Source: Mycetocola zhujimingii (lineage in GTDB: Bacteria; Actinomycetota; Actinomycetes; Actinomycetales; Microbacteriaceae). From it: a stretch of 64,000 nt of DNA. The DNA is taken from positions 2,976,001 through 3,040,000 of the forward strand of contig NZ_CP026949.1 of the NCBI RefSeq assembly GCF_003065425.1, written 5' to 3'. This document shows, in pieces, positions 866 to 5,820 of the stretch. The position numbers were made by a program, and so were the translations under genes. Within the stretch, counting starts at the first letter, position 1; each line of letters starts with the position of its first letter. Below the pieces are notes generated by a model. It did not search any database and had not been told where the DNA came from. It saw only the letters and a list, made by a program, of their open reading frames with translations.

Positions 866-2038
866 ATGATCAACAAAGAGGGAGCCAGCCAACAAATGGA
901 CGTAGCACAACCAGGTGCGTCTGACTCCGGCCGCACGAGAGCGACCCCGCTCGGAACCGCGAGCATCGGGTCGCTGGAGTCATGGGAAGTGGGCCTTGCT
1001 GCACCGAAAATCGACGTGGTCAACGGCGACGCACGCGATACGAAGTTGCCGAACAACCACGCCGATTTGATAGTGACATCGCCCCCGTACTGGAACAAGC
1101 GCGACTACGGCCACATCGACCAGATCGGTTTAGAGGCAACGCCCCAGGCATACGTATCTTCGATCATGGATTGCTTGGATGAGTGGAAGCGAGTCCTCAG
1201 GCCGAGCGGATCAATCTTTCTGAACGTCGGCGACACATACTATCGCCGTTCCTTGGTAGGGATTCCCTCACGAATTGAAGCGAAGGCTATCGATGCGGGA
1301 TGGGCCGTGAGAAACAGAATCATCTGGGCGAAAGAGGGCGGCATGCCGGATCCCGCTCGCGATCGCCTCGCAAACCGTCACGAGTACATCATTCACCTCA
1401 CTTACAAGCCGAACTATTACTACGATCTCGTGGGCTATTCGGCGGAGATGGGAAACGGCGCGAACCCGGGAGACGTTTGGACTATCAATCCTGAACGGAA
1501 CATGGGGGCACACCTCGCCCCTTACCCTCAAGAACTCGTGCGGCGAGCCGTGCTTTTGGGTGCTCCACCGCAGGTGTGCGCAACTTGCGGAACCGCTCGA
1601 CGCCGAGTCATCGAGCGCACGCGCTACCTAGATCCGAGCCGTCCGCAAGCCAAACGAGCGATGGAGCTTGCAGACGCAGCGGGACTTTCTGATGCCCACA
1701 TTCGGGCAATCCAGGCGACCGGGGTATCCGACGTTGGCAAGGCCACAAAATTCCAAAGCGGTACTGGCCGCAATACTGCTGAGGTTCAGCGGTTGGCATT
1801 GGAGGCAAAGGAAGTTCTTGGCGGATACTTCCGCGAATTTACGTTCTCAAAAAAGCAGACGGTTGGATGGACTGACTGCGGACACGAGACCCCCGCGCGG
1901 GGTGTTGTATTGGACCCCTTCATGGGCACAGGAACCACTTTGAAAACAGCGGCATCGATGGGACGTGACGCCGTAGGAGTGGACCTGGTTCCACTCATGG
2001 ACGCGCCAGATTCGGCGAAATGGACTTCTAAGACTTGA
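866..2038 (+). CDS. Site-specific DNA methyltransferase, beta class (TSPPYW)
   Basis: A 390-residue S-adenosylmethionine-dependent DNA amino-methyltransferase. Catalytic motif IV, TSPPYW, is at residues 71-76 and the AdoMet-binding motif DPFMGTGTT is near residues 350-358, so the order IV before I is that of the beta class. SPPY is more usual in N4-cytosine than N6-adenine enzymes, but this cannot be settled from sequence. Between the motifs sits an insert with CATC (238-241) and a later CGH near residue 338, which could form a zinc ribbon. The start at 866 has AAAGGA about ten bases upstream. The gene ends 11 bases inside the 3' end of the convergent mcrC-like gene, so it is probably the protecting partner of that restriction operon. 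Confidence 0.85.
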   Translation: MINKEGASQQMDVAQPGASDSGRTRATPLGTASIGSLESWEVGLAAPKIDVVNGDARDTKLPNNHADLIVTSPPYWNKRDYGHIDQIGLEATPQAYVSSIMDCLDEWKRVLRPSGSIFLNVGDTYYRRSLVGIPSRIEAKAIDAGWAVRNRIIWAKEGGMPDPARDRLANRHEYIIHLTYKPNYYYDLVGYSAEMGNGANPGDVWTINPERNMGAHLAPYPQELVRRAVLLGAPPQVCATCGTARRRVIERTRYLDPSRPQAKRAMELADAAGLSDAHIRAIQATGVSDVGKATKFQSGTGRNTAEVQRLALEAKEVLGGYFREFTFSKKQTVGWTDCGHETPARGVVLDPFMGTGTTLKTAASMGRDAVGVDLVPLMDAPDSAKWTSKT

Positions 2039-3398
2039 GCCCAAGAAGCGCAGACACCTGAGTGGCGAAAAGCTCATCTTCGATGTCTAGGTCGTCGGCC
2101 GAAAGATCGTATCGATAGTCAAAAACAGACACGTCGCCGATGCGTCCGAGGAGCTGTAGTCCACCTAAATTATCGAGTCCTTTTGGATGCACTAGTAGTA
2201 CAGCGGACGTCCCGTAGCGAACTGCGTAGGTTACGGCCTGTTCTACTTCTGAACGAGACGGTAAATCCTTCATCAGAGTGTTCTTCAGTTCGGCAATGAG
2301 GGCGATCGAACCATCCGGGCGTTGAAAGACAATGTCAGGCGTGACGCGCGGGGGATTGGAAACGCCTTCGATCAACGGCGTATAGGAAACGCCGCCCACT
2401 TCTGTCCGAGGAATCGGACTCGAATAAAGGGGCAAATGCCCGTCGACATTGCCGTCAAGCACCGCGACGGGCCACCCGGCATCGGCCGCCTTGGATTGCA
2501 AGGTTGTACGCACATAGGTTTCGAACAGCTCTCCCATGTTAAGCAACATTGACGACAGAGCCAGGTCTCCGCTCTCATCGTCTAGGGAAACACCCCGGTC
2601 GGAGATGATCGCGACGGCAAGGCGGAGTGGTGTGCGATAGTAACTGCGAGTCATGGGCGGCGCTGTCAGACCGGCAACGATCGGGTCAGATAAAAAGGCC
2701 CGAGAGGGGTCAACAGAAACGTCCGCGAATAGTTGGAGGAGGCTAGAAAGTTGGCGCACGCGCGTCCGACTTCCCAAGAGCCCTTTCTGCGGGTCAACGT
2801 AGCGCCGATACAGTTTCACCAGTGCAGCTTTCAAGCATCGATTCAACGCATTATCGATGGTTCGTTCGTACCAGGAAAACGCTGCCGTATTGTTGATACC
2901 TCGGGCAGCGAATCTTCGAATGGTCGCTGGAATCTCCAAATGACCGCGCGGTCGACTCCCAAAGTCAGTCTCGCGACGGTAGACCCTGTAAAGACCGCTG
3001 TTGACGACCTCAAAACAATGTCGAATTAAAGCGTCCGCGTAAATATCGAGGAGCCAGTCGCCAATCGAAGCTGATGTGGCGTACGTGCGAAGCGCATCGA
3101 TTGGGAGAGCTTGATGTCCACTTCGTTCGACCATTCGAGTGAGGTTCGAAATTGGGGTTCGCGGCGTGACGCGCAGCACCAGCTGGTCGTTGATGGGAAG
3201 GACACCCACGAAACCGCCGGCCCGCAACCTCAGCTCAGTGCCCTTGAAATCGATCGAGAAGGCGTTGAGATTTTGCACCGCGGGACTCATTCGGAGCGTC
3301 CCATCCGAATTCATAATCTCGCCGCGGTCGACGCGTACATGACCATATTCGTGACATTCTCGAAACCGTACCGGGGGGCGGCCCGTCCAGCCAGTCAT
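2028..3398 (-). CDS. mcrC: McrC-like subunit of a 5-methylcytosine-type restriction system
   Basis: A 456-residue protein of the McrBC_C family. The N-terminal part has the beta-rich McrC pattern (hydrophobic strands around residues 45-80), the middle is helical, and the C-terminal part holds a PD-(D/E)XK nuclease core: D355 in the TPDIVF strand and E370-x-K372 in the IAELKN strand. In the family McrC stimulates the McrB GTPase and supplies the DNA-cutting active site. The ATG at 3398 overlaps the stop of the mcrB-like gene by one base (TGATG), so translation is probably coupled. The 3' end overlaps the convergent methyltransferase gene. All expected nuclease residues are present. Confidence 0.88.
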   Translation of the reverse strand: MTGWTGRPPVRFRECHEYGHVRVDRGEIMNSDGTLRMSPAVQNLNAFSIDFKGTELRLRAGGFVGVLPINDQLVLRVTPRTPISNLTRMVERSGHQALPIDALRTYATSASIGDWLLDIYADALIRHCFEVVNSGLYRVYRRETDFGSRPRGHLEIPATIRRFAARGINNTAAFSWYERTIDNALNRCLKAALVKLYRRYVDPQKGLLGSRTRVRQLSSLLQLFADVSVDPSRAFLSDPIVAGLTAPPMTRSYYRTPLRLAVAIISDRGVSLDDESGDLALSSMLLNMGELFETYVRTTLQSKAADAGWPVAVLDGNVDGHLPLYSSPIPRTEVGGVSYTPLIEGVSNPPRVTPDIVFQRPDGSIALIAELKNTLMKDLPSRSEVEQAVTYAVRYGTSAVLLVHPKGLDNLGGLQLLGRIGDVSVFDYRYDLSADDLDIEDELFATQVSALLGLKS

Positions 3399-4381
3399 CA
3401 GTCAGCGTCTTTTTCGGGCGGGTCCGCAGCGGAAGCAGACTGCTTCCCGTCCCAGCCCCCTGGGACGTCTATGAAAAGGTTTTTCCAGCCCGTTTCAACA
3501 GACTGCCGGTTTTGAGGGTCCAAGCGGAATGCTCGATCCACAGCGAATTGGAGTTGGTGTTCCCAGACGTCCCGCATCGCATCAATACCATCGACATTAA
3601 CAAAGTAAGCGTGGCCAATAGCCGCAGAAGGATTGTCTCGCGCGAACTTGTTGACCATCGAGAACCACCCCATGACTCGGTTCCGGACTTGCTCCTCCAA
3701 CCCGCTGTTCTCGAGCACCCTACCGAGAACGTTGCGGTCTGGATCCATCTTGATTTTTGCAAAGCGGCGCTCGAACGCAGCATCAACTTCATCGACACCA
3801 CGGTCGACCGGGTTCATTGTTGCCAATATCTCTAGATTGTTCGGCACAGTTAAGGGGTTGCCGGATGCAAGAGTGACTTCGAGACCGCGCTTGCTTCGCT
3901 CCACATATGTGAGGGCTTCCCCAAAAACGCGAGCAGCATCGGCGCGGCTCAATTCGTCCACTACGAGAACGTAGGTGTTATCAGGGTCGGCCTGCGCGCG
4001 TCGGCACATCTTCAAGAAAGCCCCATCGCGACGCACGAATCCACTCGCAGTGGGGACGAAGCCTTCCATAAACTCGTCGTATTGGTAGGACGCGTGGAAC
4101 TGCACGTATTGCACTCGGCCTTGGTCCCCGGCAATCGCTTCGGCGATTTGCGCGGCCACGTATGTCTTACCGGTCCCGGGGGGCCCGCTAAAGATCACAC
4201 CCCCGAAGCTTGAAAGTAGATGCTTAACTTTCGCCAACAAAGGGTCTGCCGAAGAGAGTCGTGGGGCATCGGGCGCGTTGGACGCGTGTGTCGCGTGCAC
4301 CGTGGCTTCGAATCCAATGTCGAGATCTTCAGCCGTCAGGAGACGGCGTCCGGGGATCAGGCGCAGAGCCGAATCTGTCAT
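3398..4381 (-). CDS. mcrB: McrB-like AAA+ motor without the N-terminal recognition domain
   Basis: About 327 residues, an AAA+ NTPase of the McrB type. Walker A is GPPGTGKT at residues 66-73, Walker B VLVVDE at about 138-143, and the McrB signature MNPVDRGVDEVD lies at about 189-200, followed by an FERRF arginine region. In the family this motor hydrolyses GTP and translocates DNA before McrC cleavage. Full-length McrB has a separate N-terminal DNA-binding domain; here only about 60 residues precede the motor, so that domain is missing. ATG at 4381 overlaps the upstream stop by one base, exactly like the next junction; GTG at 4384 is an alternative start. Confidence 0.87.
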   Translation of the reverse strand: MTDSALRLIPGRRLLTAEDLDIGFEATVHATHASNAPDAPRLSSADPLLAKVKHLLSSFGGVIFSGPPGTGKTYVAAQIAEAIAGDQGRVQYVQFHASYQYDEFMEGFVPTASGFVRRDGAFLKMCRRAQADPDNTYVLVVDELSRADAARVFGEALTYVERSKRGLEVTLASGNPLTVPNNLEILATMNPVDRGVDEVDAAFERRFAKIKMDPDRNVLGRVLENSGLEEQVRNRVMGWFSMVNKFARDNPSAAIGHAYFVNVDGIDAMRDVWEHQLQFAVDRAFRLDPQNRQSVETGWKNLFIDVPGGWDGKQSASAADPPEKDAD

Positions 4382-4998
4382 CACTTGTTAGCCTCAACGA
4401 CTTCTGGCCCAAACCACTGAAAGGCAACCGCCGGTTCGCCAAGCTCAAAGAGAAGTGCGAACTCGTCGTCGTCATCGAATCTGAACCACTGGCGGAAGCC
4501 AAGGATGATGTCCGCCGCGACAGGAACAGAATCTGTGCGGTTGAAGCCATAGTTACGAAGGAAATAGGCGCCCATAGCGATTGCTGGCACTGGACGCCCG
4601 TAAAGGAGCACTTCGAGCGCCTGACCTGCGTGATCCGCTGGCAACCGATATTCCTTCCCTTCCACTAAGAAGCCGGCAGTATTGCGGATTGAGCTCGGAG
4701 CGAAGCTTCCCGCGAGGTTCTCGTTGAACCAGTAAGTGGAGCGATCGCTGTTAACATTCCACCGCAGTGGCCGATAGTTGGGCTTCTTTGGGGGCCCACC
4801 TGGCAATTCGATAAGTGGCCGGAGCTCCGACCAGCGTGGATCGAGTTTTTCTCCTGGACCGATCGACGCTCGGCGGTGCAGTTGTAGGTATGCCAAGAAA
4901 TGCGGATGAATACGACGGCTGCTAAGTGCGTCTATCGACCACTTCACCGCATCGGTTGTGAGAAGGTAGGTCCCCGAGGTGTCAACTGCGTCATCCAT
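4381..4998 (-). CDS. Unrecognised 205-aa protein opening the McrBC-like operon
   Basis: No known family is recognised. The protein is soluble, has no signal peptide or membrane segment, and is rich in aromatic residues (YWFNEN near 120, FLRNYGF near 160, RQWFRF near 180) with an acidic stretch FDDDDEF near residue 185. It is the first gene of a one-base-overlap operon with the McrB- and McrC-like genes, so it almost certainly works with them. Since the McrB-like protein lacks its recognition domain, this protein may provide DNA recognition in trans; that is inference. An in-frame TAA lies just upstream of ATG 4998, fixing the start, and no Shine-Dalgarno site is visible. Confidence 0.75.
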   Translation of the reverse strand: MDDAVDTSGTYLLTTDAVKWSIDALSSRRIHPHFLAYLQLHRRASIGPGEKLDPRWSELRPLIELPGGPPKKPNYRPLRWNVNSDRSTYWFNENLAGSFAPSSIRNTAGFLVEGKEYRLPADHAGQALEVLLYGRPVPAIAMGAYFLRNYGFNRTDSVPVAADIILGFRQWFRFDDDDEFALLFELGEPAVAFQWFGPEVVEANK

Positions 4999-5217: not shown

Positions 5218-5820
5218 GTGCAGCTCGTCCATATGGCCACCGAACCGATGCTCGATCTGCGCGCGCCAGAGGGAAAGCTTCGTCGGCTACGACGTCATCC
5301 AGTCCCCCGCCCGCTCACCCTCGCCTACGGGCTAAGCGACTCCCCCATCGGCCCCGTCGCCTGGCTGATCGACCACTTCGAGCGCTACTCCACCACCCGC
5401 AACCCACCCCATGACCTGCTCACCAATGTGATGCTCTACTGGCTGCGCAACAGCATCCGTTCGTCGATCCGCTACTACAACGAGAGCATGGGCGGCTGGT
5501 CAGCGGCGAAGCAATTGTGGGGCGATGAGACCTCCGACGATCAGGCGACGGATGCAGCGCCCAGCGAAGCTGAATGGTCAGCGGAAGCCGGTGGCTGGTC
5601 GATGAAGATCGAGGTTCTGACCGCGATTGCGGTGTTCCCGGACGACATCACCGACCCGCCGAAGGGCCACGCGGAGCGGTTCTTCGATGCGCGCCGGTTC
5701 AGGAAGATGCCGGCCGGAGGACGCTTCGCGGCGCTCGAGGTGCCGGACCTGGTCGCGGCGGACATTCGGGAGTTTGTTTCGGAGCTCACTGTGACGGGGC
5801 ATCCGTCCAGCCCCCGTTAG
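5218..5820 (+). pseudogene. Remnant of an epoxide hydrolase (C-terminal half, frameshifted)
   Basis: The reading frame resembles the C-terminal half of EHN-type epoxide hydrolases: TLAYGLSDSPIG, TNVMLYWLRNSIRSS, IAVFPDD and the end GGRFAALEVPDL. The family is normally close to 380-400 residues; the N-terminal domain and the catalytic aspartate are absent. At about 5279-5305 the conserved 'GYDVIQS' lead-in is readable one frame away, so a frameshift near 5300-5310 separates it from the rest. The usual catalytic histidine in GGHFAA is arginine. All three features mean an inactive relic. It sits exactly where base composition changes from the defence segment to the GC-rich chromosome, so the insertion may have destroyed it. 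The start at 5218 is formal only. Confidence 0.75.

What the first reader, a model, noticed from the sequence alone, without database searches (positions are those of the whole stretch)
866..4998. Modification-linked McrBC-like system with a split recognition subunit
Sequence shows a TSPPYW DNA methyltransferase convergent with, and overlapping, an operon of an unknown 205-residue protein, an McrB-type AAA+ motor with no N-terminal recognition domain, and an McrC-type nuclease. Both operon junctions are one-base TGATG overlaps. Classical McrB carries its own DNA-binding domain and cuts methylated DNA; LlaJI is a known case where McrBC-like proteins act as a restriction partner of methyltransferases. 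Here the methyltransferase looks N4-cytosine- or adenine-type rather than 5-methylcytosine-type. The inference is that this is a restriction system blocked by its own methyl mark, with the 205-residue protein reading DNA in trans.
Basis: partly seen in the sequence, partly recalled or inferred. Interest (0 to 1): 0.72.

Follow-up and report, generated by a model that had tools for sequence, protein, structure and literature searches.

The report
Methylation-guarded McrBC with separate DNA-reader candidate
Four bacterial genes look like a self-versus-foreign DNA defence in which a DNA-marking enzyme and a small, unnamed partner protein travel together and, in other microbes, appear beside different DNA-attacking machines.

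Summary
In detail: an N6/N4-type methyltransferase (MTase, 866-2038 +) converges on, and overlaps by 11 bp, a tight operon of a 205-aa protein, a short McrB and an McrC (4998-2028 -). It is not accidental: another genus of the same family has the same four genes in the same layout (MTase 70%, 205-aa protein 37%, McrB 53%, McrC 40%). Among 391 haloarchaeal genomes, 14 hold relatives of the 205-aa protein, at 15 loci, all within 3 kb of an N6/N4-type MTase. Directly linked effector genes differ: McrBC at 2 loci, Pbe-type at 11, an uncharacterised gene pair at 2. So the constant unit is MTase plus 205-aa protein. No Pfam, NCBIfam, PADLOC or PHROGs family matched it. Best reading: a methylation-blocked restriction system in which the 205-aa protein reads the site in trans for a truncated McrB. 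Two mycobacteriophages carry an MTase 76% identical, without the other genes nearby, as expected if the mark protects. The short-McrB plan has precedent (LlaI, BsuMI); the single N6/N4 MTase, unnamed family and effector exchange are new to me. DNA binding, site, mark and restriction are untested; both structure predictions failed.

The parts
866..2038 (+). N6/N4-type DNA methyltransferase, 390 aa
   Evidence: PF01555 2.2e-36; PDLC03316 2.6e-187; motif positions
2028..3398 (-). McrC-like protein, 456 aa, with a PD-(D/E)xK-like motif (D355...ELK)
   Evidence: PF10117 6.1e-19; motif by pattern; no PDB sequence match
3398..4381 (-). short McrB-like AAA+ motor, 327 aa, Walker A GPPGTGKT at 66, NxxD motif NPVD, no room for an N-terminal recognition domain
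   Evidence: (E. coli McrB structures, best 3.7e-35)
4381..4998 (-). 205-aa protein of an unnamed family, the candidate trans-acting DNA reader
   Evidence: no family
4379..4383 (-). TGATG stop-start overlap, 205-aa gene to McrB
3396..3400 (-). TGATG stop-start overlap, McrB to McrC
2028..2038 (.). 11-bp tail-to-tail overlap of the MTase and McrC genes

Best explanation
This is a horizontally acquired four-gene restriction-modification system. The MTase marks a short site on the cell's own DNA (N4-cytosine somewhat more likely than N6-adenine). The 205-aa protein recognises the same site when it is unmarked and loads a short McrB AAA+ ring, which has no recognition domain of its own, together with the McrC nuclease, which cuts. 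Methylation of the site blocks recognition, so only foreign DNA is attacked. Shown: gene content, motifs, tight packing, the same four-gene layout in another genus, MTase-reader linkage in every relative mapped, and different effector genes beside that pair. Inferred: DNA binding by the 205-aa protein, a site shared with the MTase, the direction of the methyl effect, and cutting by McrC.
For: Same four genes and layout in another genus of the family (G821: MTase 70%, reader 37%, McrB 53%, McrC 40%). 15 of 15 haloarchaeal reader loci have an N6/N4-type MTase within 3 kb (for G617 the same plasmid). Walker A, NxxD and nuclease motifs present in the window's genes. McrB lacks about 135 N-terminal residues of the E. 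coli type. In five loci (three alphaproteobacterial plasmids, two IMG/VR contigs of unknown host) a related MTase is followed by an McrB with about 225 extra N-terminal residues and by McrC, so a fused region fills the place of the separate protein. Two phages carry a 76.5 and 75.9% identical MTase with no reader or McrBC in the 13-19 kb examined. McrBC-like systems that cut unmethylated DNA are known: LlaI, BsuMI, LlaJI (PMC2614495, passage). GC of the four genes is 55.7-57.7% against 65.8 +/- 3.0% in 54 one-kb windows of 9-63 kb.
Against: 13 of 15 haloarchaeal relatives are not directly linked to McrBC, so the protein may serve the MTase and not the motor. No site, mark or activity is known.
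Confidence: 0.6

Rival explanations
1. The 205-aa protein is a partner, targeting or control subunit of the MTase and not the reader of the nuclease; the short McrB finds DNA through McrC or without sequence specificity.
For: The protein follows the MTase, not McrBC, across effector types. In Pbe-type systems PbeD, a DndE cognate, is already proposed to scan DNA with PbeC (PMC10853773, passages).
Against: Related MTases exist without it in two phages, an S. halstedii plasmid and G216, so the MTase does not obviously need it. In the window and G821 it lies in the restriction operon, on the strand opposite the MTase.
Confidence: 0.2
2. The mark activates: the protein recognises the methylated site and licenses the effector, as phosphorothioate is needed for PbeABCD protection.
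For: 11 of 15 haloarchaeal loci hold Pbe-type genes (PADLOC PbeA 8.9e-228 and PbeC 9.3e-220 for the Haloprofundus proteins). In PbeABCD, loss of dndCDEA removed protection without a growth defect (PMC6459918, passages).
Against: Phages carrying the MTase without the rest fit a protective mark better. McrBC relatives with resident MTases that have been characterised cut unmethylated DNA (PMC2614495, passage).
Confidence: 0.12
3. An ordinary Type IV, methyl-dependent McrBC that lies next to an unrelated MTase by chance.
For: The well-known McrBC is Type IV; the MTase is on the opposite strand; the low-GC stretch also holds other defence-like genes.
Against: Layout found again in another genus and linkage in two haloarchaea; no DUF3578 or other recognition domain matched.
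Confidence: 0.05
4. The 205-aa protein is itself a site-specific nuclease and McrBC is an accessory.
For: MTase plus a small adjacent protein is the plan of simple Type II systems (recalled).
Against: No nuclease family match; no acidic residue among the invariant or nearly invariant columns of the ten-sequence alignment.
Confidence: 0.03

Closest known systems
LlaI and BsuMI (McrBC-related Type II systems with three-ORF restriction cassettes)
   Same: Short McrB-like subunit (337 and 343 aa reported; 327 here) in a three-ORF restriction cassette with resident methylation (PMC1459862, passages; PMC2614495, passage)
   Different: One N6/N4-type MTase instead of the reported pair of MTases; MTase gene convergent. 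Homology of the 205-aa protein to an ORF of the LlaI or BsuMI cassettes was not tested: those sequences were not reached.
LlaJI
   Same: McrBC-like motor and nuclease paired with MTases and acting on unmodified DNA (PMC1459862, passages; PMC12707154, passage)
   Different: LlaJI has two 5mC MTases and a B3 reader domain in the McrB-like subunit; here one N6/N4 MTase and a separate protein
E. coli McrBC (Type IV)
   Same: McrB AAA+ core (3.7e-35 to E. coli McrB structures) and an McrC-family protein
   Different: No fused N-terminal methylcytosine-binding domain, and a conserved resident MTase
PbeABCD / CxC ABC-ATPase systems with methylases
   Same: In haloarchaea the same kind of MTase-reader pair accompanies PbeA- and PbeC-like proteins; pairing of Pbe with MTases was already proposed (PMC6459918, passages; PMC10853773, passages)
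   Different: The window has McrBC and no Pbe genes. The methylase-linked partner named in print is MTaX1 (PF20296), which did not match

Membership tests
McrBC-related Type II R-M (LlaI, BsuMI, LlaJI group) | McrB-like AAA+ motor with NxxD motif | tested here: met
McrBC-related Type II R-M (LlaI, BsuMI, LlaJI group) | McrC-like protein with PD-(D/E)xK motif | tested here: met
   PF10117; motif by pattern
McrBC-related Type II R-M (LlaI, BsuMI, LlaJI group) | conserved linkage to a resident MTase | tested here: met
McrBC-related Type II R-M (LlaI, BsuMI, LlaJI group) | pair of MTases | tested here: not met
   one MTase at the cassette; another MTase about 5 kb left of the window start lies with other genes
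McrBC-related Type II R-M (LlaI, BsuMI, LlaJI group) | cuts unmethylated DNA | not testable with these tools
   needs experiment
LlaI/BsuMI three-ORF cassette | an ORF of the cassette homologous to the 205-aa protein | not tested
   LlaI and BsuMI sequences not reached; two lactobacillus plasmid loci looked at had long McrB-like genes (1650 and 1473 bp)
Type IV McrBC | methyl-binding domain fused to McrB | tested here: not met
MTaX1 (PF20296) | match to the profile | tested here: not met
   0 of 5 genomes or records at E up to 10; not among the matches of 9 family members in Pfam at E up to 10
Pbe systems | PbeA and PbeC in the locus | tested here: not met
   none among the window's genes. By BLAST to the Haloprofundus proteins both are present at 10 of 15 haloarchaeal loci and part at an eleventh on a short contig; PADLOC itself was run on the Haloprofundus proteins only
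Type II N6/N4 MTase | PF01555 with TSPPY and DPFxGxGT motifs | tested here: met

The most novel reading that the evidence does not exclude
The MTase and the 205-aa protein form a portable address module: one writes the self mark, the other reads its absence at the same site, and the pair plugs into unrelated attack machines (McrBC; Pbe-type helicase plus CxC ABC ATPase; a third, uncharacterised gene pair) in bacteria and archaea. Self-recognition and attack would then be separable, exchangeable parts.
Probability: 0.4. Interest if true: 0.78.

Novelty: new variant of a known kind. Interest (0 to 1): 0.56.

Why it matters
If right, it turns one odd operon into a test of modularity in immune systems: the same writer-reader pair should direct different effectors to the same site. 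It also gives an unnamed protein family a testable role, supplies a methylation rule for a split McrBC, and suggests why phages carry stand-alone copies of this MTase.

Tried and rejected
Controls were made for the three-row comparison only: 1 of 15 column shuffles scored higher than the real pair, and so did the reversed alignment (E 0.05). A direct profile search of those McrB proteins also gave nothing. Kept as a lead only. Structure: reader model mean pLDDT 47, fused-region model 34; no fold search was made on either. PDB matches of the 205-aa protein to HIV protease constructs (best E 0.0023) were judged chance; the ten-row profile had no match. Weak family matches of reader relatives (RteC 0.034; a V-type ATPase subunit 0.016) are far below cut-offs and differ between members. 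MTaX1: accession recalled, its label confirmed by the tool, no match. Searches of 396 genomes of the phylum with the single protein and the ten-row profile found only the window's own copy; 398 genomes of its family gave one more; the MTase at E 1e-60 was found in 2 of 396, the own genome and G216. Trees (11 readers and 14 MTases, near-identical copies left out, the Natronomonas McrBC reader represented by its 134-aa piece): no reader branch reached the starred level and G624 is a long branch. An empty-site comparison was begun with the gene right of the cassette (short weak matches in 2 of 5 other same-genus genomes) and not pursued. A Natronosalvus plasmid with a 37% MTase gave only a doubtful reader match (E 0.029).
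Full report
Observation. The MTase (866-2038 +) matches PF01555 at 2.2e-36 and a PADLOC Type II methyltransferase profile at 2.6e-187 over residues 19-381. TSPPYW at residue 71 and DPFMGTGT at 350 put the catalytic motif first and the SAM-binding motif last; that TSPPY leans to N4-cytosine is recalled. Tool evidence on the base is mixed: PDB matches include a cytosine-N4 enzyme (8s9n, 1.7e-6) and RsrI and CcrM (1.1e-7 and 4.7e-7), which I recall as adenine enzymes; a 34% relative in Natrialba phage PhiCh1 is annotated as putative N4-cytosine. McrB (3398-4381 -) has Walker A, Walker B and NxxD motifs, and its residue 61 aligns with residue 196 of the PRK11331 McrB model, so the recognition domain is missing. 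McrC (2028-3398 -) matches PF10117 and has a D...ELK motif. The 205-aa protein matches no family in Pfam, PADLOC, NCBIfam or PHROGs. Both operon junctions are TGATG.

A second genus. Of 398 genomes searched from the window's family, one besides the window's own has a relative of the 205-aa protein: G821, another genus. Its locus holds the same four genes in 4.6 kb in the same layout: MTase on one strand, then McrC, McrB and the 205-aa homologue on the other, MTase and McrC overlapping tail to tail by 4 bp. Identities are 70% (MTase), 53% (McrB), 40% (McrC) and 37% (205-aa protein). In 396 genomes of the phylum neither the single protein nor the ten-row profile found another copy, so the system is rare.

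Haloarchaeal relatives. A weak plasmid hit in Haloprofundus (25.7%, E 1e-7) led to a profile search of 391 genomes of the class of Natronomonas aquatica: 14 have a match, giving 16 places and 15 loci, because one Natronomonas gene is cut by contig ends into two places. Maps of the flanks (for G617 the plasmid of the same length and coordinates) show an N6/N4-type MTase within 3 kb of all 15. Two Natronomonas loci share one MTase, and in G624 the MTase is only distantly related (21%; PF01555 1.8e-46). Five of the 15 are near copies of one locus, so they are not independent events. Effector genes differ. Eleven loci have Pbe-type genes: for the Haloprofundus proteins PADLOC gives PbeA 8.9e-228 and PbeC 9.3e-220, and the other loci were assigned by BLAST to these, one of them on a short contig showing only part. 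A 152-aa protein there matches the phosphorothioation-associated family TIGR04062 at 5.3e-11, below its cut-off. Two loci have instead a 685-aa protein with a below-cut-off GHKL-ATPase match (0.0074) and a 247-aa protein. Two have McrB and McrC. In Natronomonas the McrBC cassette is reader, McrB (317 aa), McrC (402 aa) on one contig, with the MTase (57% to the window's) and the front of a reader at the end of another contig. That these contig ends are neighbours is inferred. In G624 MTase, reader, McrB (308 aa) and McrC (441 aa) lie in one row.

Effector exchange. In trees the Natronomonas McrBC-linked reader falls with the haloarchaeal readers, next to the Salarchaeum one (85/93), and its MTase with haloarchaeal MTases (89/91), not with the window's; the McrBC-linked rows form one side of a branch in 4% (readers) and 0% (MTases) of 200 bootstrap trees. 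Support is moderate. It suggests that similar writer-reader pairs have been coupled to different machines.

L053 in those calls is an IMG/VR contig of Dulcie's length, so these are four sources in five loci. Whole phage genomes were not mapped. A phage gains from such a gene most simply if the mark protects DNA from a host system; the host in those records is a Mycobacterium, not the window's organism, so the link is indirect.

Fused counterparts. The window McrB's three best plasmid places are alphaproteobacterial. In these Mesorhizobium, Roseibium and Sphingobium plasmids and in two IMG/VR contigs a related MTase (31-33% to the window's for the plasmids) precedes an McrB with about 225 extra N-terminal residues and an McrC. 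The extra region takes the place of the separate protein. I could not show homology: E 0.093 and 0.047 in profile comparisons, 0.05 for a reversed control.

Setting. The four genes have 55.7-57.7% GC against a mean of 65.8% (54 one-kb windows). The low-GC stretch continues left of the window over another MTase, a protein with a weak DndB match and a Schlafen-type helicase. To the right a 200-aa ORF (5218-5820) matches the C-terminal part of a 478-aa epoxide-hydrolase ORF of a same-genus genome at 73%, so the gene here looks truncated at the island's edge.

Mechanism. Shown: parts, motifs, order, overlaps, linkage and different effector genes. Inferred: the 205-aa protein binds the unmethylated site and recruits the short McrB ring and McrC. 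Support comes from the missing McrB domain, the protein's first place in the restriction operon, the fused counterparts by position, and the published LlaI, BsuMI and LlaJI cases (PMC1459862, passages; PMC2614495, passage; PMC12707154, passage). The chief doubt is that the protein follows the MTase more faithfully than McrBC, which fits a reader but also an MTase partner.

Known and new. The short-McrB, three-ORF plan is in print for LlaI and BsuMI. Pbe systems with MTases are in print: candidate base-modifying proteins within 10 kb of 155 of 320 solitary PbeAC (PMC6459918, passages), and MTaX1 as a frequent partner of methylase-bearing CxC systems (PMC10853773, passages). None of the listings or passages I saw (searches; passages 17-19, 63-65, 69, 124, 125) describes this 205-aa family or one MTase-reader pair with both McrBC and Pbe genes. 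That is weak evidence of absence: the family has no name to search for, only open-licence papers are held, no supplement was read, and the 2020 ABC-ATPase classification paper was not available. Verdict: a new variant of a known kind.

Noticed in passing
5218-5820 +: 200-aa ORF matching the C-terminal part of a 478-aa epoxide-hydrolase ORF in a same-genus genome at 73%: apparently a truncated gene at the right edge of the low-GC island.
   Followed up: partly
L068:12097-17761 (left of the window, G000:C1 about 2970096-2975760): A second defence-like cluster in the same low-GC stretch: N6/N4-type MTase (461 aa), a 579-aa protein with a weak DndB match, and a 633-aa Schlafen-group helicase with a weak GIY-YIG match.
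   Followed up: no
L047:2072-4051, L043:6984-9083, L046:10078-12141: Haloarchaeal Pbe-type loci with the 205-aa family also carry a cytidine-deaminase-like protein, in some a longer protein with a DNA gyrase A C-terminal beta-propeller (PF03989 3.9e-62 for the L047 protein). Role unknown.
   Followed up: partly
L072:1382-6860: G216: an MTase 54% identical to the window's directly followed by a 1475-aa SF1 helicase, another possible effector for this MTase subfamily.
   Followed up: partly
L047:4008-4616: The second Natronomonas family member lacks the otherwise well conserved segment around residues 90-105 of the window protein, while one MTase lies between it and the McrBC-linked member.
   Followed up: no
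300-623 +: Small ORF of 107 aa upstream of the MTase; residues from 303 had no family match in Pfam, PADLOC or NCBIfam.
   Followed up: no
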